Of a stretch of 51,257 nucleotides of DNA, positions 2,589 through 22,536 are shown in pieces. This stretch comes from Limnothrix sp. CACIAM 69d. GTDB taxonomy: Bacteria; Cyanobacteriota; Cyanobacteriia; CACIAM-69d. The number at the start of each line of letters is the position of its first letter. Position 1 is the first letter of the stretch. The stretch is taken from assembly GCA_001913845.2 (NCBI GenBank), contig MKGP02000080.1, positions 1 through 51,257 on the forward strand, in the 5' to 3' direction. A program made the translations under genes and the position numbers. A model generated the notes under the pieces. The model was not told the DNA's origin. It did no database searches and was given only the letters and a program-made list of their open reading frames with translations.

Positions 2589-3041
2589 GGTTCTCTCCTC
2601 AGTTAACTGGCTGGCAATGGAAGTTACTCGTTAGACAACGGATTCAGCGACGAAACGTAGGAAAAGCAAGGAAAAACAGGGGAACAATAGAGCATTGACC
2701 GTTGCCAAGCCTAGGCCACTCTGGGGACTCAGCACCGGCCTTGCACTCCCTTGGCTGAGTTGGTGGCAGCGATGTTGCGCCCATTGTTCATGATAGTTGG
2801 CAAATTGGCGGGTCGAGGGGCGGCGTGCGCCAAAGCAACATCGGTTACACCCCTTGAACACCCATTGAACCGCAGACCGAGCAAACCAGCCATCGATCGC
2901 CCCTGTTCATTGCCCTAATTTCTCTGCGAAAAGTCCGATCGTTCAAGTTCGGATCTCCCGACTGGGTGGGCGTTTTGCCTCAGAGAAGAATCGGCTAAGA
3001 TCAAAGACAAATGGGTGTTAACAATGACCCAGGCATAAAAC
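2589..3041. other. Gene-free stretch, about 450 bp
   Basis: This lies between the divergently transcribed TM2 and DUF1825 genes, so it must contain both promoters. The open frames in it lack recognisable motifs. I see no tRNA, no strong terminator and no member of the palindrome family. A small RNA cannot be excluded. Confidence 0.5.
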
Positions 3042-3368
3042 ATGAGCATTTTTGATTCTGAAATTGTCCAACAGGAAGCTAGGGAAATTTTTGGCACTTA
3101 TCAATCCCTAGTGCAGCTTGGGGGTGACTACGGCAAGTTCGATCGCGAAGGGAAGCGACTTTACATCGAACAGATGGAAACCGTACTCGATCGCTATCGG
3201 ATTTTCATGAAGCGATTTGAATTATCAGATGACTTCATGGCCAAAATGCAAGTGGAACAACTAAAAACCCACCTCTCGCAATTTGGTATGACTCCTCAGA
3301 TGATGTTTGATCAGATGCACATCACCTTGGAGCGCATGAAAGCAGAATTAGAAGCATCCAAGAATTAG
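3042..3368 (+). CDS. DUF1825 family protein
   Basis: A 108-residue soluble, mostly helical protein beginning MSIFDSEIVQQEAREIF, typical of the DUF1825 family that is nearly universal in cyanobacteria and of unknown function. Conserved features include the YGKFDREGKRLYIEQME block at about 30-46 and the C-terminal Met-rich TPQMMFDQMHITLERM segment. It starts at an ATG. No partner is linked in an operon: the Uma2 gene downstream is on the opposite strand, about 95 bp away. Confidence 0.9.
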   Translation: MSIFDSEIVQQEAREIFGTYQSLVQLGGDYGKFDREGKRLYIEQMETVLDRYRIFMKRFELSDDFMAKMQVEQLKTHLSQFGMTPQMMFDQMHITLERMKAELEASKN

Positions 3369-3462
3369 GTTATTTTCCTGTTAATTTTCAATGGATCACT
3401 TGAGCCATTTCAACTCAAAATAGCAGGCCAAATTCAGGAAAACTGAACCGCCTTTAATTGGG

Positions 3463-4032
3463 CTAATCCAGCAAAAAGCTCTGTAGATCCTCAATCATCA
3501 GTGCCACCCCTTGGGCAAAATCAGGCACGGGCAGACGATCGCCCAAGTCTACGAAAGCCCGAGGCGATCGCCCTGCTTGATAGACCAACACCGACAGATC
3601 CTCCGGGTCAATCAACCAAGCCATTTCTGTGCCCTGATCCAAACAAAACTGCATCTTTTCGATCAGCCGAATCAAGGGCTGTTGTGGTGACGCAATCTCC
3701 ACAACCCAATCGGGTGCAAAATCGAAACTGTTGGCGACTCGGCCATCGGATTGGCGAGGAATTCGATCCCATTTGACCACCACGATATCGGGCACAAGCA
3801 CACGCCCCCCGAAGGTGCAACGCAATTCTGCACCGGCTCTAGCAATGCGTGCTTTGCGCAAAACACTGTTCAGCACCGCAGTAAGTTCTGATTGCAAGTA
3901 GCTGTGCTGACCTTGTGGCATTGGCTTCTGATGAACCTGGCCGTTGATGTATTCGCTAGCCGGTTGAGTTTCGGGCAATGCGAGAAATTCAGCCAGCGAC
4001 AGGGCCCGATCGCGGGAGACAGCAAGCACCAT
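3463..4032 (-). CDS. Uma2 family (DUF820) PD-(D/E)XK nuclease-like protein
   Basis: About 189 residues from the ATG at 4032 (MVLAVSRDRALSLAEFLALP); a TTG at 4065 would add eleven residues. It has the Uma2 order of motifs: an N-terminal LPETQPASEYINGQVHQKPM segment, then LVPDIVVVKW, then DWVVEIASPQQ, the PD...(E)xx core of the restriction-endonuclease-like fold. The C-terminal part reads MAWLIDPEDLSVLVYQ. Uma2 genes are strongly amplified in cyanobacteria and their role is unsettled. This is one of four in the window and is not a close copy of the others. Confidence 0.9.
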   Translation of the reverse strand: MVLAVSRDRALSLAEFLALPETQPASEYINGQVHQKPMPQGQHSYLQSELTAVLNSVLRKARIARAGAELRCTFGGRVLVPDIVVVKWDRIPRQSDGRVANSFDFAPDWVVEIASPQQPLIRLIEKMQFCLDQGTEMAWLIDPEDLSVLVYQAGRSPRAFVDLGDRLPVPDFAQGVALMIEDLQSFLLD

Positions 4033-4092
4033 AACCAGCCTCGTATGGGGGATGAGCTGTTTCAATTTTAGCGATCGCCCGCGATCGGCTCC

Positions 4093-4785
4093 CTAAACCC
4101 GCAACTGCGTAATGGCGATCGCGCCACCAAAGCAAACGGCCACATCGGTTCCCGGTGTTTGGGGGCGACCACCATAGATGCCGCTGTACTGATAGCCCTC
4201 CTCTGTGCGCCGGTAAATCGGTGGAACCGGGTCACGGGATGGCTCACAAAACACGATTTCGGGATCGGGGGAGCCAGGGTCGAGATGCGGGAAATTCACA
4301 TTCCAAAAACTGCCAGGCTCCCAGGGGCAATCGAGCAACAGGGGCAACACCCGCGCTGCCTGCTGAGCCGCCCAATCCCAATCGATTTCCAAGGGCCGTC
4401 GGATCCAGTGCGACAGGGCGATTGCCCGCCGGCCTTGCAGCGTTGCTTCCCGAGCGGCCGCCACCGTACCCGAGTTATAAACATCCGTGCCCAGGTTGCC
4501 GCCCGCATTAATGCCCGACAGCACCAAGCTCACCTCGGGAACCAGCTCACTCACCGCCAACCGCACACAGTCGGCCGGTGTGCCCGCCACGGAGAACCCG
4601 CGATCGCGCTCCTGTACCGCCAGCACACGATGGTTAGTAATCTGGTGGCCACAGCCCGACTGCTCCCCGGCCGGCGCAACCCACCGCACTGAACCCAACT
4701 GCAATTCCGTCACGGCGCGATCGAGCGCGGCAATCCCCGGCGCATCGTACCCGTCATCATTCGTCAGCACCAAAACCTGCGCCAT
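4093..4785 (-). CDS. surE: 5'/3'-nucleotidase SurE
   Basis: Metal-dependent nucleoside monophosphate phosphatase. The N-terminal VLVLTNDDGYDAPGIAAL contains the metal-binding Asp pair. It is followed by VAPAGEQSGCGHQIT, then GTPADCVRLAV, then the SGINAGGNLGTDVYNSGTVA block with the remaining metal ligand Asn. Length (230 residues) is normal for a compact SurE. It starts at an ATG. It lies 60 bp upstream of the Uma2 gene on the same strand, so cotranscription is possible. The role is nucleotide salvage or survival in stationary phase, by homology only. Confidence 0.95.
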   Translation of the reverse strand: MAQVLVLTNDDGYDAPGIAALDRAVTELQLGSVRWVAPAGEQSGCGHQITNHRVLAVQERDRGFSVAGTPADCVRLAVSELVPEVSLVLSGINAGGNLGTDVYNSGTVAAAREATLQGRRAIALSHWIRRPLEIDWDWAAQQAARVLPLLLDCPWEPGSFWNVNFPHLDPGSPDPEIVFCEPSRDPVPPIYRRTEEGYQYSGIYGGRPQTPGTDVAVCFGGAIAITQLRV

Positions 4786-4857
4786 AATTCCTCAGCGATC
4801 GCGAACAGTTTTCTATTGTTCCACTGACCAGCAACACCCCGCGACACCATCAACAGA

Positions 4858-4877
4858 CAAGGGGTTTAAAACCCTTG
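4858..4877. repeat. Variant of the dispersed palindrome
   Basis: CAAGGGGTTTAAAACCCTTG, followed by CCCCCACCACC. It is an imperfect member of the AAGGGG-centre-CCCCTT family, in the intergenic region between the divergent surE and first xisI genes. Confidence 0.8.
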
Positions 4878-4949
4878 CCCCCACCACCGGTCGATCATTA
4901 GTAACAGTATTGGAGGATCTAAACTGTTAAAGATGAGAGAGTGGCTGTC

Positions 4950-5285
4950 ATGGAAAAGTTAAATCAATATCGCCAGGTTATTCAAGAAATTTTGCTTGAG
5001 CACAGCCAAATTCAGCCAGCCTATGGCGAAATTGAAATGGCAGTGATATTCGACCATGAACGCGATCACTATCAAGTCATGCGTTCAGGTTGGCTTCAGA
5101 AACAACGAGTCTATGGCGTTCTAATTCATATTGATCTCAAGGGCGAAAAGATTTGGATCCAATATGATGGAACAGAAGTGGGCGTGGCTAATGAACTTCT
5201 AGAAAAAGGAGTTCTCAAAACAGATATTGTATTGGCTTATCACTCGCCATTTATGCGTCAATACAACGGATTTGCCGTTAATTAA
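4950..5285 (+). CDS. XisI family protein (copy 1)
   Basis: 111 residues from the ATG at 4950 (MEKLNQYRQVIQEIL, the usual family N-terminus); a GTG nine bases earlier is less likely. Family hallmarks are FDHERDHYQVM.SGW..KQRVYGVLIHIDLKGEKIW, IQYDGTE and the C-terminal LAYHSPFMRQY.GFAV. XisI was named as an accessory of fdxN-element excision in heterocystous cyanobacteria and normally sits beside xisH, a nuclease-like gene. Here there is no xisH; a second xisI follows 61 bp downstream instead. The present function is unknown. Confidence 0.93.
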   Translation: MEKLNQYRQVIQEILLEHSQIQPAYGEIEMAVIFDHERDHYQVMRSGWLQKQRVYGVLIHIDLKGEKIWIQYDGTEVGVANELLEKGVLKTDIVLAYHSPFMRQYNGFAVN

Positions 5286-5346
5286 TTCTGGCTTCTAAGT
5301 GATCTGCCATGAAATCTAAATCATTTTGAGTGAGGTTAATTACCCG

Positions 5347-5703
5347 ATGACAACCTCAAATTCGGAAACAGAGAAACAGCAAGCCTACCGCACAGTTATT
5401 AAGCAGTTTCTGACAGACTATGCAGCCTATAAGCCATCCTATGGCGACATCGAAATTCAAACCTTGTTTGACCGCGAGCATGACCACTATCAGGTTTTGG
5501 CGATCGGCTGGTACAAAAAACAAAGAATTTATGGTTGCTCAATGCACCTTGATCTAAAGCAAGGAAAAATCTGGATTCAGGCCAACAACACCGAGCTGGA
5601 CATTGCTCAAAATTTGGTTGAACGAGGTATTCCCAAAGAAGATATTGTGATTGGGTTTCATCCACCTCATTTCCGCCAATTTTCAGGCTATGCGATCGCC
5701 TAA
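5347..5703 (+). CDS. XisI family protein (copy 2)
   Basis: 118 residues from the ATG at 5347, with a GAGG about 11 bases upstream; an in-frame TTG at 5326 is a weaker start. It parallels copy 1 motif for motif (YGDIEIQTLFDREHDHYQVL, KKQRIYGCSMHLDLKQGKIWIQ, IGFHPPHFRQFSGYAI). It is about half identical to copy 1 by eye, so the duplication is old. It carries a Ser/Thr-rich N-terminal extension absent from copy 1. No xisH neighbour is present on either side; the next gene is rph on the opposite strand. Confidence 0.93.
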   Translation: MTTSNSETEKQQAYRTVIKQFLTDYAAYKPSYGDIEIQTLFDREHDHYQVLAIGWYKKQRIYGCSMHLDLKQGKIWIQANNTELDIAQNLVERGIPKEDIVIGFHPPHFRQFSGYAIA

Positions 5704-5715
5704 AAACTTTAATTC

Positions 5716-6444
5716 TTAACCATTTGAGTCGGCAAGGGCAGCCGCTTGGGCCGCCATTAATTTACCGATGCCCTTTTCGGCCAAATCCAGCAGCGCATTC
5801 AGTTGCGATCGACTGTAGCTACCCGATTCCGCCGTGCCCTGCACTTCAATTAAATTACCCTCGCCGTTCATCACCACGTTGAAGTCCACATCGGCGGCCA
5901 CATCTTCCGGGTAGTTCAAATCCAGATAGGCGGATCCCTCGATCAACCCCACGGAAACGGCAGCGACCGGCGAGAGGATCGGCAGCATTGCCAACTCCCC
6001 AGCATCCACCAGCGATCGCAACGCATCCACCAGCGCCACATAGCAGCCCGTGATCGCCGTGGTGCGCGTGCCCGCATCGGCCTGCAACACGTCCGCATCG
6101 ATCGCCAGGGTGCGCTCCCCCAAGCCCCGCAAATCCACCGCCGCCCGCAAACTCCGGCCAATTAGCCGTTGAATTTCTTGGGTGCGCCCGGACAGCTTGA
6201 AGGTTTCCCGCGACTGCCGATCGGGCGTGGCCCCCGGCATCATTCGATATTCCGCCGTCAGCCAGCCTTGACCCGAATCGGCCAGCCAACGCGGCACACC
6301 GGACTGCACAGACACGGTGCAAATTACCTGCGTGTCACCACAACAGGCCAACACAGACCCGGCGGAATATTTGGTGAAATTGCGCTGAAATCGAACGGGG
6401 CGGAGCTGGTCGGGCGATCGACCGTCGGGACGTTGCCAGGACAT
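5716..6444 (-). CDS. rph: RNase PH
   Basis: Phosphorolytic 3'-5' exoribonuclease that trims tRNA 3' ends. It has 242 residues from the ATG at 6444 ([17 protein letters not shown]). Family blocks seen are [34 protein letters not shown], the phosphate-binding [20 protein letters not shown] and [19 protein letters not shown]. Length is normal. It lies 28 bp downstream of prfA on the same strand, so the two are probably cotranscribed. Confidence 0.96.
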
Positions 6445-11848: not shown

Positions 11849-12766
11849 ATGAATGTGCCGCTAGTTTATCACCCCGATTATGTCGCGCCGTTGCCCCCCG
11901 GCCACCGGTTCCCGATGCAAAAGTTTGCCAGGCTCTATGACCGATTACGCAGCGATGGCACGGCAACCCCCGAACAGTTTCACCAACCCGATCGGCCGCC
12001 CCAGGACTGGATTGAGCTGGTGCACGATCGCGCCTATGTGGAAGCCTATTGCCAAGGCACTTTGGATCCGAAAGCCCAGCGCCGAATTGGGTTGCCCTGG
12101 TCGCCGGCCTTGGCCAATCGTACCTGCGTGGCGGTCGGTGGCACGGTGCTGACGGCGCGGCTGGCCCTGCGCCATGGGCTGGCTTGCAATTTGGCGGGCG
12201 GCACGCACCACGCCTTCCCCGATTTTGGCTCCGGATTTTGCATCTTCAACGATTTGGCGATCGCCACCCGGGTTTTGCAGGCCGAAGGCTTGGTCGATCG
12301 GGTTTTGATTGTGGACTTGGATGTGCATCAAGGGGATGGAACCGCTTGGATTTTTCGCAACGAGCCGCAGGTCTTCACCTTTTCCATGCATTGCGAGGCA
12401 AATTTTCCCGCCCGCAAACAGGCCAGCGATTTGGATGTGGCATTGCCGGAGGGCATGGAAGATGATGACTATTTACAAACACTCGATCGCTTCCTGCCCG
12501 ATTTGCTCGCCCAAGTGCGGCCCGATTTGGTGATTTACGATGCGGGGGTGGATCCACACGGGGGCGATCGGCTGGGCAAGCTCGCCCTCACCGATTCCGG
12601 TTTGTTTCGGCGGGATATGCAGGTGCTGACCACTTGTGTGGCGGCGGGCTATCCGGTGGCCTGCACGATCGGCGGCGGCTACTGCGATGATTTGGCGGCC
12701 CTGGTCGATCGCCACGCCCTCATCCACCGAGCAGCGGCTCAGGTCGCCCAGTGTTACGGTCTCTGA
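11849..12766 (+). CDS. Histone deacetylase-fold amidohydrolase
   Basis: 305 residues. Zn-dependent deacetylase family motifs are in order: GGTHHAFPDFGSGFCIFND (the tandem active-site His pair and the FND turn), then VDLDVHQGDGT with Asp and His zinc ligands, then DAGVDPHGGDRLG with the third Asp ligand. The N-terminus MNVPLVYHPDY and the GGGYCDD near the end are also typical. Bacterial members act on acetyl-polyamines, acetoin-related acetylated enzymes or other small amides; the substrate here cannot be told. It starts at an ATG. The gshA gene follows about 270 bp downstream on the same strand. Confidence 0.93.
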   Translation: MNVPLVYHPDYVAPLPPGHRFPMQKFARLYDRLRSDGTATPEQFHQPDRPPQDWIELVHDRAYVEAYCQGTLDPKAQRRIGLPWSPALANRTCVAVGGTVLTARLALRHGLACNLAGGTHHAFPDFGSGFCIFNDLAIATRVLQAEGLVDRVLIVDLDVHQGDGTAWIFRNEPQVFTFSMHCEANFPARKQASDLDVALPEGMEDDDYLQTLDRFLPDLLAQVRPDLVIYDAGVDPHGGDRLGKLALTDSGLFRRDMQVLTTCVAAGYPVACTIGGGYCDDLAALVDRHALIHRAAAQVAQCYGL

Positions 12767-12836
12767 GCTGCTACGGTTTCTGGGTCACTGGTGCTCAGCA
12801 AGGGCGATCGCGCAACATATCGCCCACCGGCCAGGC

Positions 12837-12874
12837 AAAACCAGATCCAACAAAACCAGATCCAACAAAACCAG
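12837..12874. repeat. Tandem 15-bp repeat
   Basis: The unit AAAACCAGATCCAAC occurs twice in full and then partially, in the intergenic region between the deacetylase-like gene and gshA. It is probably slippage-derived. The rest of the 267-bp gap shows nothing else. Confidence 0.75.
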
Positions 12875-13035
12875 GCCAGAACCCGACAGAACAGCCGCCG
12901 GGCGATCACCCTTTTCAAGACACAAAAAATCCCGGCAACGGCAGAACAGCCCTCGGGCGATCGCGCCGCAGGCGACAATAGAAATCGGGCTGGCAGAGCA
13001 GACCGACGCGCACAATTGCTTCACAACTCCCTATG

Positions 13036-14187
13036 ATGCTGTCCAAAGGCTTTGAAATTGAAATCTATACCGGAACCCACGATGGGCAAATTGTGGGCCT
13101 GTCCGATCGCATTACCGCCAACCTAGATGGCTTTGTGCGCGAACCCGACAGCCGCAACGTGGAATACACCACCGCCCCCCTGTGCAGCTATGAGCGGTTG
13201 CTGTGCGATTTACTGGTTCCTCGGTTGCGCCTGCGCCAATACCTGAAAACCCTGGGCCCCTACACCCTAGTGCCCGGCGGCACATTAGCCCTGGGCGGGA
13301 GCGATCGCTTCTACCGATCTGACCCAGCCAACCCTTACCACGCCTACATTGAACGCACCTACGGAACCAAAGTCGTCACCGCCAGCGTTCACATCAACAT
13401 TGGCATTGCCGATCCAGAATTGTTGATGCGGGCCTGTCGGCTGGTGCGGGTGGAAGCACCGCTTTACTTGGCCCTGAGCGCTTCCTCTCCTTTCTTGGAT
13501 GGCGAGCCAACCGGATTCCATTCCACCCGCTGGCACCTGTTCCCCCAAACGCCCGATCGAGTGCCCCTGTTTGAAAGCCACGCGCACTTCATTCGCTGGA
13601 CGGAAGAGCAATTAGAACTGGGAACCATGCAAAATGTCCGCCACCTCTGGAGTTCCGTGCGGCCCAACGGCGATTGCCGGCCCTACAACCTCAATCGATT
13701 GGAACTGCGGATTTGTGACCCGGTGATTGACCCCTTGGCCCTGCTGGCGATCACAGCCCTACTGGAGGCTCGGCTGTGCCAATTGATGGACGATCCCAGC
13801 TTAGATCCCCTGACTGCGAGCCTGTTGCCGGCCACCACCCGCCATGACGATTTATTGTCATTGACCCTGGCCAACGAAATGGCCGTCGCTCGCCACAGCT
13901 TGGATGCATCCCTACGCCATTGGCAGGATGGCCGCACCATCAAGGCCAGGGATTGGATCGCTCAACTCTATACAGAATTACGCCCGATCGCCAAAGAGCG
14001 CGGGTTTAGTTGCTTCCTGTCGCCCTTGCAGCGCATTTTGCGGGAAGGCAGCGCCGCCCAACAGTGGCTCCAACAGGTGGAAACGGGCCACAGTTGCCAA
14101 GCGGTGGTGGCCCAAGCGATTCAAGAGGCCCAGCAGTGGGAACGGGACTTGGCAGACCAGACCTGTCAAGGTTCATTGGTGGCCTAG
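13036..14187 (+). CDS. gshA: Glutamate-cysteine ligase, cyanobacterial type
   Basis: ATP-dependent first step of glutathione synthesis. The protein has about 383 residues. The start is one of two adjacent ATGs (13033 or 13036); MLSKGFEIEIYTGT matches the cyanobacterial family best from the second. Characteristic parts are VGLSDRITANLDGFVREPDSRNVEY, VTASVHINIGI with ligand-binding residues, LALSASSPFLDG and WSSVRPNG. This clade is of the GCS2-like carboxylate-amine ligase fold rather than the E. coli GshA type. No gshB is nearby. Confidence 0.93.
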   Translation: MLSKGFEIEIYTGTHDGQIVGLSDRITANLDGFVREPDSRNVEYTTAPLCSYERLLCDLLVPRLRLRQYLKTLGPYTLVPGGTLALGGSDRFYRSDPANPYHAYIERTYGTKVVTASVHINIGIADPELLMRACRLVRVEAPLYLALSASSPFLDGEPTGFHSTRWHLFPQTPDRVPLFESHAHFIRWTEEQLELGTMQNVRHLWSSVRPNGDCRPYNLNRLELRICDPVIDPLALLAITALLEARLCQLMDDPSLDPLTASLLPATTRHDDLLSLTLANEMAVARHSLDASLRHWQDGRTIKARDWIAQLYTELRPIAKERGFSCFLSPLQRILREGSAAQQWLQQVETGHSCQAVVAQAIQEAQQWERDLADQTCQGSLVA

Positions 14188-14327
14188 GTTGCCCATGGGG
14201 CCAGCCTGGTTAATCGCCCCCATACATTGCGCTCCTATGCATCGCGCTTCGGTCGATCGCGCCGATTCAATCCGCATGATTTAGATCAACTCAAATCGAG
14301 TCAAATGGGGATGCTCAATCAGGATAA

Positions 14328-14885
14328 TCAGCGATTCGATCGCCAATCTTGCCAGCGCAACTTCAACGACACATAGAGCGGCCACTGGTAATGTTCCAGC
14401 ACCAACCAGGCGGCCAAAATGAAATGCCCGATCGCCGCTGAAACTAACCACCCTTGGCCAAATCCCACCGATCGGGAGCCGGGCAACGGGGGAAAGAGGT
14501 ATTGCGACAAACCAATCAACCCCACCGGCCCGATCGCCAAAATCACCGCCAGCAGCCAGATGGTCGGTGTGAGCGCTTCATTGCTGTGGCGCACCGGTTG
14601 CCACGATCGCCCCAACCAACGCCACTGCAAGGGCTGGGTGCTGTCTTCCACCCGCAAAATCCGGGATTGCAAATCCAGCGTGAACAGATGCCGACAAAAA
14701 TCGCAGGCCCAGGCATCCTCCATCATCGGCATCGGCTGGATTTGTCCGTGGCGACAAATGGGACAGGGGTGCTGATCGCGATCGTCCAAGGGAGCCAACA
14801 CCGACCACCCCAACTCCCGAGGCTTGGGTACTTTGCTGAATCTGGGGGGGCGATCGCCCGATCGCTGAAAATCAAACGCACTCAT
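14328..14885 (-). CDS. Zinc-ribbon membrane protein
   Basis: 185 residues with a cytosolic N-terminal zinc ribbon: CPIC at about 41-44 and CDFC at about 61-64, set in HPCPICRHGQI and AWACDFCRHLF. Two membrane helices follow, at about 107-127 (TIWLLAVILAIGPVGLIGLS) and 145-162. The family appears to be a cyanobacterial one of unknown role; I do not recognise a named homolog. It starts at an ATG. It is convergent with gshA and lies upstream of Uma2 on the same strand. Confidence 0.75.
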   Translation of the reverse strand: MSAFDFQRSGDRPPRFSKVPKPRELGWSVLAPLDDRDQHPCPICRHGQIQPMPMMEDAWACDFCRHLFTLDLQSRILRVEDSTQPLQWRWLGRSWQPVRHSNEALTPTIWLLAVILAIGPVGLIGLSQYLFPPLPGSRSVGFGQGWLVSAAIGHFILAAWLVLEHYQWPLYVSLKLRWQDWRSNR

Positions 14886-14976
14886 GGTGCCCCTGGCTCT
14901 CGAAACCGTTCTCGCTCAGTCTAGCCAGTTGCCCCCGCGAATTTCCCATCCCTTAAGAAAATTCACGCCTCTTGGG

Positions 14977-15720
14977 TTAATCAACGGCTTCCCCCGCTTC
15001 GGGATCGATGCCCAACTCCCGCAGCCGGGCCGCCAGGCGATCGGCTCGTTGCTCCGCTTGGGCTGCTCGCTGGGCTTCCGTGGCGGCCCGTTGGCGTTCG
15101 GCGGCCGCTCGATCGCGCTCCACCTCGGCCTCGCTGCGATAGCGTTGGCCCCGCGCGTCATACCAAGTGAGGACTTCCCGATCGAATGGGTCATCGATGA
15201 GGCGATCGCGCCCAATCCCTAACCCGATTTCCGGCATCCAACAGGGTTCACCACTTTGCCGTTGATAGGCCCCATCAACGAGTTTGTAAACCTCAAACGG
15301 ATCGTGACCATCCCGCTGCCAAAACTCGGGGTTATAGATCACGTAATACAACACGCCTAAACGGGCATAAATTGCCATTTTGCTGTCGTATTCCCCGCCT
15401 GGCTTGTGGGACACCAGCTCTAGGGTGAAAATCGGCGGGATGTTGTCTTCTGTCCAAATAACGTAGTTTCGGCGTGATTTTCTATCTTTGCGGCGATCGA
15501 CCCCAATGCTCAAGAAGGCATTCGGAACCACCGGGATGCACGGATTAGAACCCGTGATGTGATAGATGCCCATATTGCCCGAGAAAAACCAATCTTCCCG
15601 ATGTCGCCAGAGGTAGTTCAACGACATCAACAACACAGCGGGAATAAAAAATTGGTCTTCGTTATCGACAAGGGTATCGTCGGCATCGATTAACTCGTCA
15701 ACGGGGGACAGTGAGTCCAC
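14977..15720 (-). CDS. Uma2 family protein with coiled-coil tail, N-terminally shortened copy
   Basis: 247 residues from a GTG at 15720. Core motifs are VPNAFLSIGVDRR, IPPIFTLELVSH and LGVLYYVIYNPE. A charged helical tail built on AERQRAATEAQRAA ends in LRELGIDPEA. The paralog at 19215-19961 is about 90% identical over the core. Here, codons homologous to the paralog's first 20 residues persist upstream (KPQCQKRRPMLPSSLE), but a TGA replaces the TTA codon, so translation must restart at this GTG. The protein may still be active because the lost part precedes the nuclease-like core. Confidence 0.88.
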   Translation of the reverse strand: MDSLSPVDELIDADDTLVDNEDQFFIPAVLLMSLNYLWRHREDWFFSGNMGIYHITGSNPCIPVVPNAFLSIGVDRRKDRKSRRNYVIWTEDNIPPIFTLELVSHKPGGEYDSKMAIYARLGVLYYVIYNPEFWQRDGHDPFEVYKLVDGAYQRQSGEPCWMPEIGLGIGRDRLIDDPFDREVLTWYDARGQRYRSEAEVERDRAAAERQRAATEAQRAAQAEQRADRLAARLRELGIDPEAGEAVD

Positions 15721-15836
15721 AGCAGATCACTCCAAAGACGATGGCAGCATGGGGCGGCGCTTCTGGCATTGCGGCTTAATGGTTCTATCTTGGCAAATGG
15801 TTGGCCAAAATTTGTCACCCCCGCAGGAGGGATTGC

Positions 15837-16307
15837 ATGACTTCCGATCGCCCTGAACATTCTGAGAACTTGTCGCCTGTGTCTGAGGATTTGGTGTCGC
15901 TGGTGCTGTTGGTGGATGAGCCGATCGCCCCGGCTGCGGATCTCACAACGACTGATCCTGACCCCGATCGCAAAGGTTTCTTTCCTGGTTTCATGGGCGA
16001 AACCTATTTCCCCGATGATCGGCAAGCGCAGCAGGATCGCAACGTGCGGGAGGCAATCGCCCAAAAAGCGCAGCAGGTGCAAGCCAAGGTGGTGGATGTG
16101 TCGGCGCGGCAGTTGGCCCAGCAGATCAAGTTGTTTGAAACCCTGGTGCAACGGGCGATCGCCCAGGCGGATTTACAAACCCTGGCGATCGAGAAGGTGC
16201 AGCTACAGTTGGGGATTTCGGCGGAGGGGTCGATCGGCATCCAAGCGGTGGGGGCGAAAGGCGGCGTAACGGGCACGATCGCGATCGAATTGAAACTGAA
16301 GGGCTAA
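15837..16307 (+). CDS. Pepco-like (peptidase co-occurring) domain protein
   Basis: 156 residues from the ATG at 15837, chosen because a strong GCAGGAGG lies 6 bases upstream. An acidic N-terminal half contains DRKGFFPGFMGETYFPDD. The C-terminal 65 residues (LAQQIKLFETLVQRA through LQLGISAEGSIGI to the end) match my recollection of the Pepco domain, whose C-terminus reads like VEL-x-V-x-I-x-x-EG followed by a Gly-Lys-rich strand. Pepco domains are described beside trypsin- or caspase-like peptidases in multigene conflict systems. The caspase-FGE gene starts 43 bp downstream, so the two are probably an operon. The domain name is by eye and needs a profile search. Confidence 0.7.
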   Translation: MTSDRPEHSENLSPVSEDLVSLVLLVDEPIAPAADLTTTDPDPDRKGFFPGFMGETYFPDDRQAQQDRNVREAIAQKAQQVQAKVVDVSARQLAQQIKLFETLVQRAIAQADLQTLAIEKVQLQLGISAEGSIGIQAVGAKGGVTGTIAIELKLKG

Positions 16308-16350
16308 ACCCGTTATGGTGGCGTGAAAGCAATGAGCAAACCTGGGATAC

Positions 16351-18282
16351 ATGAGCGCTGAGGGGCGGAACTGGGCGATCGCGATCGGGGTGAACCATTA
16401 CGATCGCTTGCCGTCGTTGAAATATGCCGAGCGCGATGCCCAGGAGATGGCGGCGTTTTGGCGGTCGATCGGCTTTGAATTTGTGCGGCTGTTTGACTCC
16501 CAGCAGGGCGATCGGCTGCGGCAACCGACTCGGGCCAATGTGATTGAACTGCTGGGCCAAATTGCCGCCAACCGCAAGCTGACGGCGGGCGACAATTTTT
16601 GGTTTTTCTTCAGTGGCCACGGAATGTTGGACGCGGAAGGGCGCGATTATCTGATGCCCATGGAAGCCTCGCCGATGAGCGTAGCGGAAACGGGGATTCG
16701 CGTGTCCTACGTGGTGGAACAGTTGCGGCGGTGCGGCGCGGACAATGTGGTGCTGCTGTTGGATGCCTGTCGGGATGAGGGGCCATCGACTGGGGCTAAG
16801 GGGGCAGCGGGTGTTGGCGAAGACATGGCGAACCAGGGGCGGCTCAAGGGCGTGGTGAGTATTGCTTCTTGCAGTCGCTATGAGTCGTCCTACGAGCTAG
16901 AAGAGTTGCAGCATGGGGCGTTTACCTATGCGCTGTTGGAGGCGTTTCGCAGTCAGCGGGGCTATGCGACGGTGGCGAGTTTGGATCGCTACTTGGTCGA
17001 TCGCGTGCCGCAGTTGGTGGGGCGCGATCGGCGGCAAACGCCGCATACGGTGGTGGAGCCGATCCGCAAATCGCACCTGATTTTGTTTCCGCACCAATCG
17101 GAGCCGGGAGATTGGGCAGAGTTACGGGCGGATGCTTTTCAGGCGGAACTGGAGGGCGATTTGCAGCTTGCGGAACAGCTCTGGATTCGGATCAATATTG
17201 CCTCAGCGGGGAAGTTGGGCCGCCAGTGTTTTGAGGCGCTATTTCGACTTCGGGGTAAACAACAAAACGCCACGCCGTCGCCGATTGTTGTGCCTGCTAG
17301 TCCGAAGCAGGTAGAACCAGCGCCACAGCCGCCCGATACGTTTGCGGGTTGGGAGTTGCGGGAGTGGTCGTTTGAGACGGTGCGGGTCGATCGCGCTGGT
17401 CAAATTGTTGAACGGCTGCCCAAAACGGCTAAGTCGCACTTTGTAGATTTGGGTGGTGGAGTGCAACTGGAACTTGTGGCGGTTCCCGGCGGCGAGTTCC
17501 AAATGGGATCACCCGCCACTGAATTGGAACGCATGGATCGGGAAGGGCCGGTGCGAACCGTGACCGTGCCGCCGCTGTTGGTGAGCCGTTATCCGGTGAC
17601 GGTGGAGCAATGGAGACGAGTGGCGGGGAGCTTCCCAGCGGTGCTGAACCCGCAGCTCAACGCCGATCCCTCGCGCTGGAAAGAAGCAAAGGGGCCAATC
17701 GAGTGCGTGAACTGGTTCGATGCAATGGAATTTTGCGCGCGACTGTCGAAGGCCACGAATCGACTGTATCGATTACCCAGTGAAGCAGAGTGGGAATATG
17801 CCTGCCGAGGGGGAACACAAACGCCCTTTGCCTTTGGGGAAACCCTCAGAAGCGATCTTGCGAACTACGACGGGAATTACACCTACGCCGACGGGCCAAA
17901 GGGGGAATATCGAGAACGAACAACCCCTGTGGGTCAATTCCCCCCAAACAGGTTTGGGTTACAGGACATGCACGGGAACGTGTGGGAATGGTGCATGGAT
18001 GATTGGTATGACAGCTATGCCAAAGCGCTGAGTAGAGCAGAGGCGAGATTCCAGAATGATAATCATTCTCACGCCTTTAATTCAGCAATAAAAGTCAACA
18101 ATTACCAAGAGCGATTTTTTCAGGAATTGGTGAAGGTTGACAATCAAAAGCTTTTGCGGGGCGGTTCGTGGGACTACTATCCTGGGTATTGTCGCTCTGC
18201 GGTTCGTTTCGGCAATTCGCCGGACAACCGCAGCAACGATATCGGTTTTCGTGTTTGTTGTGCCGTTGCGCGGACTTCCTAG
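16351..18282 (+). CDS. Caspase-like (C14) peptidase fused to FGE/C-type-lectin domain; likely DGR variable protein
   Basis: 643 residues. Residues 1-250 form a caspase/metacaspase p20-like domain beginning NWAIAIGVNHYDRLPSLKYAERDA. His90 lies in FFFSGHG and Cys140 in LLLDACRD, so the dyad is intact. After a Pro-rich linker (about 305-330), residues 370-640 form an FGE-sulfatase/C-type-lectin domain: PGGEFQMGSP, RYPVTVEQW, RLPSEAEWEYACRGG and DMHGNVWEWCMDDW, ending LLRGGSW...CRSAVRF...IGFRV. That end is where diversity-generating retroelements mutate their targets. It probably acts as a binding-triggered suicide protease. The ATG at 16351 has only a weak ribosome site, so it may be coupled to the Pepco gene. 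Confidence 0.9.
   Translation: MSAEGRNWAIAIGVNHYDRLPSLKYAERDAQEMAAFWRSIGFEFVRLFDSQQGDRLRQPTRANVIELLGQIAANRKLTAGDNFWFFFSGHGMLDAEGRDYLMPMEASPMSVAETGIRVSYVVEQLRRCGADNVVLLLDACRDEGPSTGAKGAAGVGEDMANQGRLKGVVSIASCSRYESSYELEELQHGAFTYALLEAFRSQRGYATVASLDRYLVDRVPQLVGRDRRQTPHTVVEPIRKSHLILFPHQSEPGDWAELRADAFQAELEGDLQLAEQLWIRINIASAGKLGRQCFEALFRLRGKQQNATPSPIVVPASPKQVEPAPQPPDTFAGWELREWSFETVRVDRAGQIVERLPKTAKSHFVDLGGGVQLELVAVPGGEFQMGSPATELERMDREGPVRTVTVPPLLVSRYPVTVEQWRRVAGSFPAVLNPQLNADPSRWKEAKGPIECVNWFDAMEFCARLSKATNRLYRLPSEAEWEYACRGGTQTPFAFGETLRSDLANYDGNYTYADGPKGEYRERTTPVGQFPPNRFGLQDMHGNVWEWCMDDWYDSYAKALSRAEARFQNDNHSHAFNSAIKVNNYQERFFQELVKVDNQKLLRGGSWDYYPGYCRSAVRFGNSPDNRSNDIGFRVCCAVARTS
18154..18279 (+). other. 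Candidate DGR variable region (VR) at the gene's 3' end
   Basis: This is the last 42 codons of the caspase-FGE gene. Fixed codons (TGTCGCTCTGCG, CCGGACAACCGC, ATCGGTTTTCGTGTT) alternate with runs that look like mutated AAC/AAT codons: GAC TAC TAT, TAT, GTT, TTC GGC AAT and AGC AAC GAT. Almost all keep C or T in the third position, which adenine-specific mutagenesis of an AAY-rich template would produce. No template repeat or reverse transcriptase gene is in the window, so this would be a remote target. The inference rests on pattern and on the known family, not on an observed template. Confidence 0.6.
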
Positions 18283-18335
18283 CGCTTTACACTCTTGCCC
18301 TTTTGCCCTTTTCGCTGTTTCCTTTTCCCTCTCCT

Positions 18336-18361
18336 CCGCGCTGTGCGCGGTCGATTTTTTT
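18336..18361 (+). terminator. Intrinsic terminator after the caspase-FGE gene
   Basis: A perfect 6-bp stem CCGCGC-TGT-GCGCGG (18336-18350) is followed by TCGATTTTTTT. It lies 54 bp after the stop codon. It has the form of a rho-independent terminator. A hairpin just after a variable region is also a known feature of some diversity-generating retroelements, so it may serve both roles. Confidence 0.8.
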
Positions 18362-18366
18362 CACGG

Positions 18367-18544
18367 GTAGGGTGCATGGGAGAACGTTTGGCATGAAACG
18401 ATCATTTCCCCACATCTCCCATGCACCGCAATCGACCGCAACAAGCCGATAATCTTTGATCGGTTTTGTCGCCCCAATCCATGGTGCATGGGAGAACGAA
18501 TAAACCATTTCGTGACGATTTGAAATTGCTCCCATGCACCCTAC
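18367..18544. repeat. Nested double inverted repeat, core GGTGCATGGGAG
   Basis: Four arms alternate in orientation: GGTGCATGGGAGA at 18371-18383, TCTCCCATGCACC at 18415-18427, GGTGCATGGGAG at 18483-18494 and CTCCCATGCACC at 18529-18540. Each neighbouring pair makes a perfect 12-13-bp stem with a 31-34-base loop. The outermost arms extend to 16 bp (18367-18382 with 18529-18544), so one long or two separate hairpins can form. This is the whole content of the gap between the caspase-FGE gene and the convergent Uma2 gene. It could be a structured RNA, a double terminator or a pair of mobile palindromic units. Confidence 0.85.
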
Positions 18545-18596
18545 ACGATCGCAATTAATCGATTGAGGGGCGATCAATTGTGATCAAGAATTCTCA

Positions 18597-19163
18597 TCAA
18601 AAATCCCACGGTTCAAATAACTCCGCCACCGGGAACTCAAACCCGCTCACCACATCCTCCCCCTCCAACAAATCGCCAACCCGCAACAGGCGATCGGGTT
18701 CCGGGCCGTGATAGACCAAAATGCAGCGCTCATTCGGGTCAATCTTCCACAGTAAGCGCGTTCCGTTGGCAAAATATTCCACAATTTTTTGGTGCATTTC
18801 GTCCACCGTGTTGCCCGGCGACAAAATCTCCACCACCAGATCCGGCGCACCCTCAAAATAGCCTTGGGGCGGGCGGCTGAGACCCTGCAACCGAGATCGA
18901 TCGATAAAGGCAATATCAGGCGATCGCCGGTTGCCATTGGCCAAGGTAAACGCCGTGCTCGAATCACAAACCGCCCCCAAACGACGCGATCGCACCCAAT
19001 TCATCAACGCCGCCACCAAAACGCAGGCCAAATAGCCATGCTCCATCCCCGCATGGCCCCTATCCACCACCTGACCGTCCACCAACTCATACCGATGACC
19101 CTCTCGGGGCAAGGCCATCCAGTCTTGATCCGTCCAGGTTTGGGGGCTTGTGGCAATGGTCAT
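18597..19163 (-). CDS. Uma2 family protein
   Basis: 188 residues, starting at an ATG (MTIATSPQTWTDQDWMALP). It has the standard Uma2 order: GHRYELVDGQVVDRG near residue 20, RSPDIAFIDRSRL near 81, APDLVVEILSPGNT near 106 with the core PD and E residues, then NGTRLLWKIDPNERCILVY. It differs from the two Uma2 genes that flank this block (those have the long coiled-coil tail). It lies 50 bp downstream of the second of them on the same strand. Confidence 0.92.
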   Translation of the reverse strand: MTIATSPQTWTDQDWMALPREGHRYELVDGQVVDRGHAGMEHGYLACVLVAALMNWVRSRRLGAVCDSSTAFTLANGNRRSPDIAFIDRSRLQGLSRPPQGYFEGAPDLVVEILSPGNTVDEMHQKIVEYFANGTRLLWKIDPNERCILVYHGPEPDRLLRVGDLLEGEDVVSGFEFPVAELFEPWDF

Positions 19164-19214
19164 TCCCGTTGCGCTCCTGCCGATCGCGATCGCCTGTTGC
19201 TACTGTGCCGTGAC

Positions 19215-19961
19215 CTACTCGATCGCCTCGGGATCAATCCCCAACTCCCGCAACCGCTCCGCCAGGCGATCGGCTCGATCGCGCTCCACCTCCGCCTCGC
19301 TGCGATAGCGTTGGCCCCGCGCGTCGTACCAGGTGAGGACTTCGCGATCAAATGGGTCATCGATGAGGCGATCGCGCCCGATTCCCAACCCGATTTCTGG
19401 CATCCAACAGGGTTCACCACTTTGGCGTTGATAGGTTCCATCAACGAGTTTGTAAACCTCGAACGGATCGTGACCATCCCGCTGCCAAAACTCGGGGTTA
19501 TAGATCACGTAATACAACACCCCTAAACCGGCATAAATCGCCATTTTGCTGTCGTATTCTCCGCCTGGTGTATGGGACACCATTTCCAGGGTCAAAATTG
19601 GCGGGATGTTGCTTTCCTTCCAAGTCACGTAGCTGCGACGCGATTTCCCGTCTTTACGGCGATCGACCCCAATACTCAAAAAGGCATCGGGAACCACCGG
19701 CACGCGCGGATTAGATCCGGTGGTGTGATAGATGCCCATGTCGCCCGAGAAAAACCAGTCTTCCCGCTGTCGCCAGATGTAGTTCAACAACATCAACAGC
19801 ACACCAGGAATGAAATATTGGTCTTCGTTATCCACGGGCGTATCGTCGGAGTCGGGTAGCTCGTCAACGGGGGGCAGGGAGTCTAGTAATTCCGCCGATA
19901 ATTCCAAAGACAAGGGCAGCATGGGGCGGCGCTCCTGGCATTGCGGCCTAACAGTCTCCAT
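19215..19961 (-). CDS. Uma2 family protein with coiled-coil tail, full-length copy
   Basis: 248 residues from an ATG. An internal ATG at 19922 is possible, but homology to the paralog's relic upstream codons supports the longer form (METVRPQCQERRPMLPLSLE). Core motifs are VPDAFLSIGVDRR, IPPILTLEMVSH and YDSKMAIYAGLGVLYYVIYNPEF. The tail is shorter than in the 14977-15720 paralog because the AERQRAATEAQRAAQ segment is absent. The two genes have the same orientation and long, nearly identical nucleotide tracts, so they form direct repeats around the 3.5-kb Pepco/caspase block. Confidence 0.9.
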   Translation of the reverse strand: METVRPQCQERRPMLPLSLELSAELLDSLPPVDELPDSDDTPVDNEDQYFIPGVLLMLLNYIWRQREDWFFSGDMGIYHTTGSNPRVPVVPDAFLSIGVDRRKDGKSRRSYVTWKESNIPPILTLEMVSHTPGGEYDSKMAIYAGLGVLYYVIYNPEFWQRDGHDPFEVYKLVDGTYQRQSGEPCWMPEIGLGIGRDRLIDDPFDREVLTWYDARGQRYRSEAEVERDRADRLAERLRELGIDPEAIE

Positions 19962-20116
19962 TCTGGCAAAGGATTTTGACCAAGACTAACCCCGGTTTCG
20001 ATCGCTCCTTGGTTCGGTGGATGGGAAGCCACAGGATAGAATGAAGCCGACAAGATTCTTAACGCGCGATCGGGCGCGGAATCTGTCCGCCCAAAGTCTG
20101 GCCCCGCCACGTCAGA

Positions 20117-20136
20117 CAAGGGGCTTAAGCCCCTTG
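20117..20136. repeat. Dispersed palindrome CAAGGGGCTTAAGCCCCTTG
   Basis: Perfect copy of the 20-bp palindrome, about 120 bp upstream of dnaK3 and preceded by AGA as at 1814. It lies in the divergent gap between the Uma2 gene and dnaK3 and could sit in the dnaK3 leader. Confidence 0.9.
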
Positions 20137-20256
20137 CCCCAAGCGCTGGCCAATGCACCACCCCGCTCAACCGGCCAGACCATCCAACTCGGCTGAACGG
20201 CCTTCCCGATCGCCCTCAGCCCCTCGCAGCCGCAACAAGAGACAAACAACCAAGCA

Positions 20257-22536
20257 ATGGGAAAAGTCGTTGGCATCGATCTCGGTACGACCAACTCCGT
20301 CGTGGCCGTCATGGAAGGCGGGAAACCCGTCGTTATTGCCAATGCCGAAGGGATGAGAACCACCCCATCCGTCGTTGGGTTCAACAAAGATGGCGAAAAG
20401 GTGGTGGGGCAGTTGGCCCGCCGCCAAACGGTGTTGAATCCGCAAAACACCTTTTACGGTCTAAAGCGGTTTATTGGCCGCAAATACGATGAGCTGTCGC
20501 CGTCCTCGAAGCGCGTGCCCTACACGATTCGGCGCAATGAGGAGGGCAATGTGCGGGTGGTGTGCCCCAAGTTGCAGCGCGACTTTCCCGCCGAAGAACT
20601 GTCGGCGATGATTTTGCGCAAGCTGGCCGACGAAGCCGAGCGTTATTTGGGTCAGCCCGTGACCGGCGCGGTGATTACGGTTCCGGCCTATTTCAACGAT
20701 TCCCAGCGACAGGCGACGCGGGACGCGGGGCGGATTGCCGGCCTGGATGTGAAGCGGATTATTAATGAACCGACGGCGGCGGCTCTGGCCTATGGTCTCG
20801 ATCGCGCCAGCAGCCAAACGGTGTTGGTGTTTGACCTCGGCGGCGGTACGTTTGATGTGTCTTTGCTGGAAGTGGGCGATGGGGTGTTTGAAGTGAAGGC
20901 CACCAGCGGCGATACCCAGTTGGGTGGGAATGATTTCGATCGCAAAATTGTGGATTGGCTGGCGGAGCAATTCCTGGAAACCGAGGGACTGGATCTGCGG
21001 CGCGATCGGCAATCCCTGCAACGGCTGACGGAAGCGGCGGAAAAGGCCAAAATCGAGCTGTCCGGCGTGGGCGCGACGGAAATTAATTTGCCCTTCATCA
21101 CCGCCACGGAGGATGGGCCGAAGCATCTGGAAACGCGCCTAACCCGATCGCAGTTTGAGGGTCTCTGCACGGATTTGATCGAACGGATTCGCGCGCCCCT
21201 GAAGCGGGCCTTTATGGATGCGGGCTTGCGGCCGTCGCAAATCGATGAGGTGGTGCTGGTGGGTGGCTCCACGCGGATTCCCTTTGTGCAGGACGTGGTG
21301 CGATCGCTCGTGGGCAAGGAACCCAGCCAAAACGTCAACCCCGATGAGGTGGTGGCCGTGGGCGCGGCGATCCAGGCGGGCATCCTGGGCGGCGAGGTGA
21401 AAGACATCTTGCTGCTGGATGTGACTCCCCTGTCGCTGGGCTTGGAAACCTCCGGCGGCGTGATGAAAAAGCTGATTCCCCGCAACACGACGATTCCCGT
21501 GCGGCGATCGGACATGTTTTCCACCAGCGAAAACAACCAAACCCAGGTGGAAATCCATATCCTGCAAGGGGAGCGGGAAATGGCCGCCAACAATAAATCC
21601 CTGGGGAAATTTATCCTCAAGGGCTTGCCGCCTGCGCCGCGCGGTGTACCCCAAGTGCGGGTCGCCTTTGATATTGATGCGAACGGCATTTTGCAGGTGA
21701 CGGCGCTGGATATGACCACGGGCCGCGAGCAAAGCGTGATTATCCAAGATGCTTCGACCCTGAACGAAGTGGAAGTGCGCCAGGCGATCGAGGAGGCCCA
21801 ACAATTCGCCGACCAGGATCGATCGCAGCGCGATCGGGTGGACAAACGCAACCGCGCCGAAGCCCTCACCTTCCAGGCCGAGCGGCAACTGCGGGAGGCG
21901 ACCCTTGATTTTGGGATGCAGTTTGTGGAAGTGCATCGACGGGCGATCGAGAAAACCGTTAAGGCCCTGCGCGAGGCGATCGCCGCCAACGACGACATCG
22001 AGATCGATCGCACCCAGGCCGACTTGCAAGACGCGATCTACAACCTGAATCGAGATGTGCGCGATCGCTATGCCGAAGAGGACGATGACAACTTCTTTGG
22101 CTCGATTCGCCGCACCTTCCAGGATGGGCGCGACGCGGTGTTGGGTGGAGGCGATCGCTTCGATCGCGACTACGGCCGCAACGACTATGGGCGCAATGAT
22201 TACGGCCGGAATGACTATGGCCGCAGCGATTACGGTCGCAGTGATTTGGGTCGGGGCGGCGACCTGAGCCGCAGCGATCGGGGTTGGAACGAGCCGAACG
22301 GCCAGGGCGATCGCCGTCGGGAACCCAGCCGCCCCGCCCCGCGCGATCCCTACGATTTGGGCTACGGTGGCGGCTATGGCAGCCCGAGCGATCGCCCCAG
22401 CCGGCCGGCCCCCCGGGATGGCAATGGGCGATCGGGCGATCGGCGGGAAGTTCGCAACAACGGCAGCAGTCAGCCGCGCGATCGGCGATCGACCTACAAC
22501 GACGGCTGGAATGACGACGATGATGATTGGTTCTAG
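20257..22536 (+). CDS. dnaK3: Hsp70 chaperone DnaK, DnaK3 type with long Arg/Asp/Gly tail
   Basis: 759 residues. The ATPase domain starts [16 protein letters not shown] and contains [17 protein letters not shown] and [19 protein letters not shown]. The substrate domain includes [14 protein letters not shown]. After about residue 620 comes a low-complexity tail with five imperfect (R)NDYGR-type repeats, then Arg/Pro/Gly-rich sequence ending NDDDDDWF. Long tails with this acidic-aromatic end are typical of cyanobacterial DnaK3, the essential thylakoid-associated paralog. Its usual dnaJ neighbour is absent; a foreign-looking gene and a second copy of the dnaK3 3' end follow instead. Confidence 0.93.

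What the first reader, a model, noticed from the sequence alone, without database searches (positions are those of the whole stretch)
15837..18361. Pepco-like protein plus caspase-FGE/C-type-lectin fusion: a candidate diversifiable suicide-protease system
Seen: a tightly linked pair, the first with a Pepco-like C-terminus, the second with an intact caspase dyad (His90, Cys140) and a C-terminal FGE/lectin domain. Known: Pepco domains accompany peptidase effectors in conflict systems, and FGE/C-type-lectin domains fused to effectors are targets of cyanobacterial diversity-generating retroelements. Inference: the lectin part is a changeable receptor, the caspase the effector, and Pepco the regulator or switch. 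A two-gene form of this kind with a remote retroelement would be a compact immune or self/nonself module.
Basis: partly seen in the sequence, partly recalled or inferred. Interest (0 to 1): 0.85.

Follow-up and report, generated by a model that had tools for sequence, protein, structure and literature searches.

The report
Caspase with swappable retroelement-tuned sensor
Two neighbouring cyanobacterial genes encode a small Pepco protein and a caspase-type protease whose tail is a variable, lectin-like sensor of the kind rewritten by mutating retroelements; the sensor travels between different defence proteins as a ready-made DNA cassette that ends in a recognisable hairpin, although the template that last wrote this copy is missing from the genome assembly.

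Summary
The small protein is a Pepco member (Pfam PF24393, 47.5 bits, cut-off 27). The partner is a caspase (His90/Cys140) joined to an FGE/C-type-lectin domain ending in a typical retroelement (DGR) variable region. The pair is strongly conserved: 56 of 79 related caspase genes, found without reference to Pepco, have Pepco directly upstream, median gap 1 nt.

The same genome holds a second Pepco-caspase-FGE pair in a complete DGR (Avd, RT, template TR). All 14 TR-to-VR changes there fall on adenines. That TR cannot have written the window's VR (33 non-adenine mismatches), and no matching TR was found, so "remote retroelement" is only partly right: the window VR is orphaned in this assembly.

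Beyond the finding: the ~1.05-kb linker-FGE-VR-hairpin stretch is a cassette shared at DNA level with unrelated N-terminal parts (a different caspase; a protein beside a MoxR-like ATPase). The hairpin is a specific marker: all 35 loci read, from 390 genomes, lie just after a DGR variable region. In other genomes Pepco-caspase carries GUN4 or YkuD tails instead. A sister species has a kinase gene at this site.

New variant of a known kind. Cell death, ligand and Pepco's role remain inferred.

The parts
15837..16307 (+). Pepco-domain gene, 156 aa (alternative TTG start at 15801)
   Evidence: Pfam PF24393 47.5-47.9 bits, cut-off 27; weak NCBIfam CU044_2847 match 0.0056
16351..18282 (+). caspase-helical linker-FGE/C-type-lectin gene, 643 aa
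   Evidence: Pfam Peptidase_C14 and FGE-sulfatase; AlphaFold2 mean pLDDT 82
16366..17052 (+). caspase domain, residues 6-234; catalytic His90 codon at 16618-16620, Cys140 codon at 16768-16770
   Evidence: Foldseek matches to MALT1 and metacaspase
17104..17268 (+). three-helix (TPR-like) segment, residues 252-306, between caspase and linker
   Evidence: predicted helices 252-267, 271-284, 290-306
17315..18361 (+). sensor cassette: end of linker + FGE + VR + hairpin, shared at DNA level with the C5 paralogue (79.8%) and with a gene beside a MoxR-like ATPase in a sister genome (77%); DNA to its left not alignable
   Evidence: phylogenetic conflict of caspase and FGE parts
17470..18255 (+). FGE-sulfatase / C-type-lectin fold domain, residues 374-635
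   Evidence: PvdO, Treponema variable protein 2y3c, formylglycine-generating enzymes
18157..18279 (+). variable region (RGGSWDYYPGYCRSAVRFGNSPDNRSNDIGFRVCCAVARTS)
   Evidence: same hypervariable/invariant pattern in about 50 homologues; identity to the C5 paralogue falls to 52-60% here against 72-92% upstream
18242..18266 (+). IMH-like invariant 3' end of the VR (TCGGTTTTCGTGTTTGTTGTGCCGT), shared in this genome only with two FGE genes on contig C27
18336..18361 (+). post-VR hairpin CCGCGC(TGT)GCGCGG followed by TCGATTTTTTT, starting 53 nt after the stop codon
   Evidence: only other copy in the genome follows the C5 VR; the motif marks DGR variable regions in other cyanobacteria
14977..15720 (-). 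Uma2-family gene, left copy of a direct repeat flanking the pair
19215..19961 (-). Uma2-family gene, right copy of the same direct repeat (93% over 300 nt)

Best explanation
Shown: a two-gene unit made of Pepco and an intact-dyad orthocaspase with an exchangeable C-terminal sensor. Here the sensor is an FGE/C-type-lectin domain with a DGR-type variable region and its post-VR hairpin. The FGE-VR-hairpin stretch behaves as a cassette moved between different effector genes; a sister copy in the same genome sits in a complete, adenine-specific DGR, while the template that wrote the window's own VR is not in the assembly. Inferred: the VR surface binds a non-self (for example phage) or kin ligand; binding clusters or relieves the caspase; the caspase cleaves cellular or effector proteins and stops or kills the infected cell; and Pepco, a likely relative of Trypco1, is the small constant partner that holds the protease off or links it to its trigger. 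New specificities arise in three ways: adenine mutagenesis from a TR, replacement of a VR by one of another template family, and transfer of the whole FGE cassette onto another effector.
For: Pepco and caspase/FGE domains. Pair conservation 56/79, median gap 1 nt. Second Pepco-caspase-FGE pair with Avd (DivGenRetAVD 1.4e-37, over cut-off), RT (IGNLTSQ and YSDD motifs) and TR; 14 A-changes, 0 others. Another complete cassette in G042: 19 A-changes, 0 others. Hypervariable pattern in about 50 homologues. Post-VR hairpin specific to VRs, 35/35 loci read. Cassette boundaries 17315-18361 and tree conflict: FGE of window groups with C5 and the MoxR-side gene, caspase of window does not group with C5. 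C-terminus swaps to GUN4 and YkuD. Pepco-Trypco1 similarity in 31 of 47 members, best 4.4e-5. Empty site in a sister species. Literature: caspase-CLec DGR targets in cyanobacteria (PMC7517822), DGR-diversified sensors of conflict systems (PMC10907252), EACC1-caspase two-gene systems (PMC7159879).
Against: No cognate TR in the assembly, so present-day diversification of this copy is not shown. No population data for the VR. No phenotype, ligand or Pepco-caspase contact was tested; the Pepco model is poor (pLDDT 61, no PDB match). The cassette tree rests partly on moderate supports (0.85 for window+C5; 1.0 for the four-member clade).
Confidence: 0.6

Rival explanations
1. The window gene is a retired DGR target: its VR was written long ago from a template family since lost and is now fixed, so the pair works as an ordinary orthocaspase with a fixed binding domain.
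For: No cognate TR found by BLAST or by the IMH pattern with 3 mismatches in a 99.99%-complete assembly; only one RT, whose TR has 33 non-A mismatches to this VR; differences to the two C27 VRs also fall at third codon positions; RT absent from five genomes of the family, several of which keep VR-bearing genes.
Against: The assembly has 100 contigs and a TR could lie in a gap; the hairpin is intact and identical to that of the DGR-borne copy; reading frame and caspase dyad are intact.
Confidence: 0.5
2. Stress-response or developmental regulator, not immunity: the caspase tunes homeostasis or differentiation and the variable lectin tunes signalling specificity, as proposed for cyanobacterial DGR targets.
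For: Pepco-caspase pairs also carry GUN4, a tetrapyrrole-binding domain suggested to report photosynthetic state (PMC7159879); a regulatory role for DGR kinases and orthocaspases is argued in PMC7517822.
Against: The same FGE cassette occurs next to a MoxR-like ATPase and, as a related domain, on EAD1, both parts of predicted conflict systems (PMC7159879, PMC10907252); hypervariation fits an adversary better than a constant internal signal.
Confidence: 0.3
3. The post-VR hairpin is only an intrinsic transcription terminator and says nothing about the retroelement.
For: A GC stem followed by a T-run has terminator form.
Against: The motif is specific: 41 hits in 390 genomes, 1 for the reversed control, and 35/35 loci read follow a VR; a post-VR hairpin is required for retrohoming in the Bordetella phage DGR (PMC3240598). 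Both roles may coexist.
Confidence: 0.2
4. Pepco is an antitoxin-like inhibitor of the caspase rather than an adaptor that links it to other components.
For: Upstream position, tight spacing and small size resemble inhibitor-first operons; the partner is a protease likely toxic when free.
Against: Relation to Trypco1, a partner of trypsin-like peptidases described as an adapter domain in PMC10907252; nothing tested here separates the two.
Confidence: 0.35

Closest known systems
DGR variable proteins with orthocaspase N-termini in cyanobacteria (Vallota-Eastman et al. 2020, PMC7517822)
   Same: Caspase-type peptidase fused to a C-terminal CLec domain with a DGR variable region; remote targets away from the RT
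   Different: The paper's text, searched here, does not mention Pepco or a hairpin motif; the window VR fails the non-adenine identity test against the genome's only TR
EACC1-caspase two-gene conflict system ('System 4', Kaur et al. 2020, PMC7159879)
   Same: Small constant 5' gene followed by a caspase with interchangeable C-terminal domains; the caspase matches NCBIfam caspase_w_EACC1 at 8.7e-22
   Different: Partner is Pepco, not EACC1; caspase score 77.6 against a cut-off of 140; EACC1 is described as having a conserved transmembrane helix, and Pepco matches no EACC1 model
MoxR-vWA ternary conflict systems with DGR-linked FGS domains (PMC7159879, PMC10907252)
   Same: FGE/FGS sensor with VR; a sister genome carries nearly the same cassette beside a MoxR-like ATPase
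   Different: No MoxR or vWA gene was identified beside the window pair (ORFs at 12000-22000 read)
Trypco1 (trypsin-co-occurring domain 1, PF19493)
   Same: Small peptidase-companion protein; 31 of 47 Pepco members hit its model weakly
   Different: Window protein is over the cut-off for Pepco only; partner is a caspase, not a trypsin
BPP-1 phage DGR target with hairpin/cruciform (Guo et al. 2011, PMC3240598)
   Same: GC-rich inverted repeat shortly downstream of the VR
   Different: Phage hairpins: 7-10 bp stem, 4-nt GRNA loop, 4-34 bp from the VR; here 6-bp stem, 3-4-nt loop of free sequence, 33-73 nt after the stop codon, T-run

Membership tests
Pepco (PF24393) | Score over the curated cut-off | tested here: met
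   47.5-47.9 bits against 27
Pepco (PF24393) | Genomic neighbour of a peptidase gene | tested here: met
   Caspase gene 43 nt downstream; 56/79 related caspases have Pepco directly upstream
Caspase family C14 / orthocaspase | p20 fold with His-Cys dyad | tested here: met
   PF00656 4.7e-23; H90, C140; fold matches to MALT1 and metacaspase
Caspase family C14 / orthocaspase | Proteolytic activity | not testable with these tools
   Needs biochemistry
DGR target protein | VR at the 3' end of a C-type-lectin-fold gene | tested here: met
   VR 18157-18279 in an FGE domain; pattern shared by about 50 homologues
DGR target protein | TR in the genome matching the VR at all non-adenine sites | tested here: not met
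   C5 TR has 33 non-A mismatches; no other TR found. C5 sister gene: 14 A, 0 other, met
DGR target protein | RT and Avd in the genome | tested here: met
   C5: RVT_1 3.8e-24, bAvd 1.2e-18, DivGenRetAVD over cut-off
DGR target protein | Inverted repeat downstream of the VR | tested here: met
   CCGCGC(TGT)GCGCGG at 18336-18350; motif specific to VRs
DGR target protein | Variation among strains concentrated at adenine-derived codons | not testable with these tools
   No conspecific genomes or reads at hand
EACC1-caspase two-gene system | 5' gene encodes EACC1 | tested here: not met
   Window 5' gene is Pepco; no EACC1 match
EACC1-caspase two-gene system | Caspase of the EACC1-associated type | tested here: not met
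   NF047832 77.6 bits, cut-off 140
MoxR-vWA ternary system | MoxR ATPase and vWA gene beside the target | tested here: not met
   None identified among the ORFs read at 12000-22000 or by Pfam on the pair and flanking Uma2 genes
Catalytic formylglycine-generating enzyme | Active-site cysteine pair | tested here: inconclusive
   Compared by eye with human FGE Cys336/Cys341 (own knowledge): one Cys (C614) in the corresponding stretch; no formal residue alignment made

The most novel reading that the evidence does not exclude
The FGE-VR-hairpin stretch is a mobile sensor cassette of cyanobacterial immunity. It is transferred as one ~1-kb DNA unit between otherwise unrelated effector genes (Pepco-caspases, MoxR-side proteins), and its hairpin works as a portable address that makes any recipient gene a target for a DGR elsewhere in the genome. 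Variable regions of different template families can replace one another within the same cassette, giving three layers of diversification: effector, scaffold and VR.
Probability: 0.35. Interest if true: 0.78.

Novelty: new variant of a known kind. Interest (0 to 1): 0.62.

Why it matters
Caspase-lectin DGR targets are known in cyanobacteria, but how such a protease is held in check and how a remote gene becomes a target are open. A constant Pepco-caspase core with swappable sensors gives a testable minimal unit. The hairpin gives a DNA-level marker for DGR targets that needs no nearby template, and it is a direct candidate for the address that a retroelement reads in trans. Exchange of the sensor cassette between a caspase system and a MoxR-side system would show that bacterial conflict systems share antigen sensors by recombination.

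Tried and rejected
Looked for a TR in the window by sliding the VR along both strands: none. Looked for one in the genome by BLAST and by an IMH pattern with 3 mismatches: only the three VRs themselves. The C85 28-bp match was fetched as L058 but not read further. Considered that the C5 TR writes the window VR in trans: rejected, 33 non-A mismatches. Considered chance pairing of Pepco with caspase: rejected. Pepco fold search gave nothing; the model is too weak. PDB sequence search with the Pepco profile: nothing credible, best E 0.17. A first all-against-all TR/VR finder timed out, and a first RT query was off frame; both were replaced. The name Pepco in its protein sense was found in no paper of the held library. 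A Pepco-caspase complex prediction was not made: the tool takes single chains.
Full report
1. Observation. The window carries, on the + strand, a 156-aa ORF (15837-16307) and a 643-aa ORF (16351-18282) separated by 43 nt. The first matches Pepco (PF24393) at 47.5 bits against a curated cut-off of 27; the second matches Peptidase_C14 over residues 6-234 and FGE-sulfatase over 374-635. The AlphaFold2 model has mean pLDDT 82: a caspase core, three helices at 252-306, a low-confidence linker around 307-326 and an FGE domain. Its best solved matches are PvdO, the Treponema denticola DGR variable protein (2y3c), formylglycine-generating enzymes, and for the caspase part MALT1 and a metacaspase.

2. 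The pair is real. A scan of 84,980 species genomes with the caspase-FGE protein, which does not know about Pepco, returned 80 loci. Among 79 caspase ORFs of at least 230 aa in them, 56 have a Pepco ORF on the same strand within 110 nt upstream, median gap 1 nt; 32 of 45 with FGE and 24 of 34 without an FGE match. In the reverse direction, of 27 loci found through the Pepco profile 18 contain a caspase gene. Pepco matches number 32 in 59 genomes, so chance adjacency is negligible. Of ten caspase genes without an FGE match that were scanned, eight carry GUN4, one YkuD and one no further known domain: Pepco belongs to the caspase, and the C-terminus is interchangeable. Some of these ORFs reach the edge of a contig, so the count without FGE is an upper bound. 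Of 47 Pepco members, 31 also hit Trypco1 weakly (best 4.4e-5), and the window Pepco hits the CU044_2847 family below cut-off (0.0056). This suggests, but does not prove, that Pepco and Trypco1 are related companions of peptidases.

3. A complete retroelement in the same genome. The genome has one RT-domain match, on contig C5. That locus reads: Pepco (L008 1882-2244), caspase-FGE (2247-4337), Avd (4488-4850; bAvd, and NCBIfam DivGenRetAVD over cut-off), RT (4847-5914) and a template repeat from 5949. Over 117 aligned bases the VR differs from the TR at 14 sites, all adenines in the TR; over 130 bases one further C-to-G difference lies just beyond. This is a textbook DGR, and its target is a Pepco-caspase-FGE protein like the window's. 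A second complete cassette of the same layout is in relative G042, with 19 A-changes and 0 others.

4. The window VR is a DGR variable region but an orphan. Its C-terminus follows the pattern LRGGSW....P..CRSA.R............GFRV seen in about 50 homologues, variable at the dots. It shares its 3' invariant stretch TCGGTTTTCGNGTTTGTTGTGCCGT with two FGE genes on contig C27 and with nothing else in the genome, at up to 3 mismatches. Against the C5 TR it has 33 non-adenine mismatches; Dore et al. 2024 (PMC10907252) used agreement at all non-adenine sites to infer trans activity. So the C5 TR did not write it, and the template that did is missing from the assembly, which has 100 contigs. Differences among the three VRs of this type fall at all three codon positions, so they are not fresh copies of one template. 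The RT is absent from the five other genomes of the family, several of which keep VR-bearing genes.

5. The cassette. At DNA level the window gene and the C5 gene align only from 17315 to 18361 (79.8%), and the window gene and a gene of sister genome G001 only from 17329 to 18363 (77%), apart from a downstream MITE-like repeat. Both alignments start in the linker and end at the end of the hairpin's T-run. The rest of the G001 protein (976 aa) has no caspase match, and the gene is preceded by an AAA ATPase with a weak bpMoxR match. Protein identity between window and C5 is 79% in the FGE part and 39% in the caspase part. In trees, the FGE part of the window groups with C5 (support 0.85), and these with the G001 gene and the G004 caspase-FGE gene (1.0 for the four). 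For the caspase part, C5 lies near G004 (distance 0.58) while the window lies far from C5 (2.41) and nearer to Nostocales sequences (1.58). The simplest reading is that the FGE-VR-hairpin stretch was transferred between effector genes. Inside it, identity to C5 drops from 72-92% upstream to 52-60% across the VR, so the VR appears to have been replaced again by one of another template family. In genome G003 an FGE domain follows EAD1.

6. The hairpin. After the VR of the window lies CCGCGC(TGT)GCGCGG followed by TCGATTTTTTT; the only other copy in the genome, allowing 2 mismatches, follows the C5 VR. Similar hairpins stand at a similar distance after the VR in L031, L033, L034, L043, L046, L104, L108, L114 and L136. 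The pattern CGCGCN{3,4}GCGCGRTCRANNTTT has 41 hits in 390 cyanobacterial genomes against 1 for its reversed control. All 35 loci that were read follow a VR-bearing gene, where measurable at 33-73 nt from the stop codon: 34 by script, and one at a contig end, where the reverse complement of the printed sequence reads ANRDHYDPENQGFDVGFRVVCV*. Some of these 35 had served to define the pattern, but most had not. In phage BPP-1 a hairpin downstream of the VR is required for efficient retrohoming (PMC3240598); the form here differs (6-bp stem, 3-4-nt loop of free sequence, T-run). It may act as terminator and target mark at once. The pattern is strict, so VRs without it, such as those on C27, are missed.

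7. Genomic setting. The pair lies between two direct repeats containing Uma2-family genes (15107-15406 and 19273-19572, 93%) with a third Uma2 gene and a MITE-like element on the right. In same-genus genome G002 the flanks are 95% and 88% identical, and the site holds one Uma2 copy and a 588-aa kinase-TPR gene instead of the pair (the kinase-TPR reading of that ORF is by eye). The locus is therefore variable between close species, as expected of a defence or conflict locus but also of many other accessory genes.

8. Mechanism. Shown: the parts, the pairing, the VR pattern, the hairpin, the sister DGR, the cassette boundaries. Inferred from family knowledge (PMC7159879, PMC7517822, PMC10907252): the lectin surface senses a ligand, the caspase is the effector, and Pepco is the constant regulator. 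Whether Pepco inhibits, activates or tethers the caspase is open. GUN4 in the same C-terminal position in other genomes, a tetrapyrrole-binding domain proposed to report photosynthetic state (PMC7159879), supports the idea that this position is a sensor input; it also keeps a stress-response reading alive.

9. Novelty. Caspase-CLec DGR targets in cyanobacteria are published, and so are DGR-diversified sensors of conflict systems. In the papers read here I found no description of the Pepco-caspase unit with interchangeable sensors, of a moving FGE-VR-hairpin cassette, or of this hairpin as a marker of DGR targets. The library holds open-licence papers only, and supplements were not available, so absence there is weak evidence.

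Noticed in passing
18364-18547: MITE-like element with 19-nt terminal inverted repeats (95% complementary) right after the hairpin; many related copies in same-genus genomes, also beside the FGE gene of G001.
   Followed up: partly
20113-20140: 28-nt dispersed repeat with palindromic core (aaggggcttaagcccctt) upstream of dnaK, found dozens of times in genomes of the same genus.
   Followed up: no
14977-15720, 18597-19163, 19215-19961: Three Uma2-family genes on the - strand around the pair; the outer two lie in direct repeats.
   Followed up: partly
L007 7425-8507 and 8659-9552: Two adjacent FGE genes on contig C27 whose VRs are of the window's type, but without the hairpin motif. A comparable tandem FGE pair exists in G004 (L230).
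   Followed up: partly
L232 2825-4006: EAD1-FGE fusion with VR in family member G003, whose genome has no RT match.
   Followed up: no
L229 3492-7414: AAA ATPase (weak bpMoxR match) followed by a 976-aa protein ending in the same FGE cassette, VR and hairpin; the genome has no RT match.
   Followed up: partly
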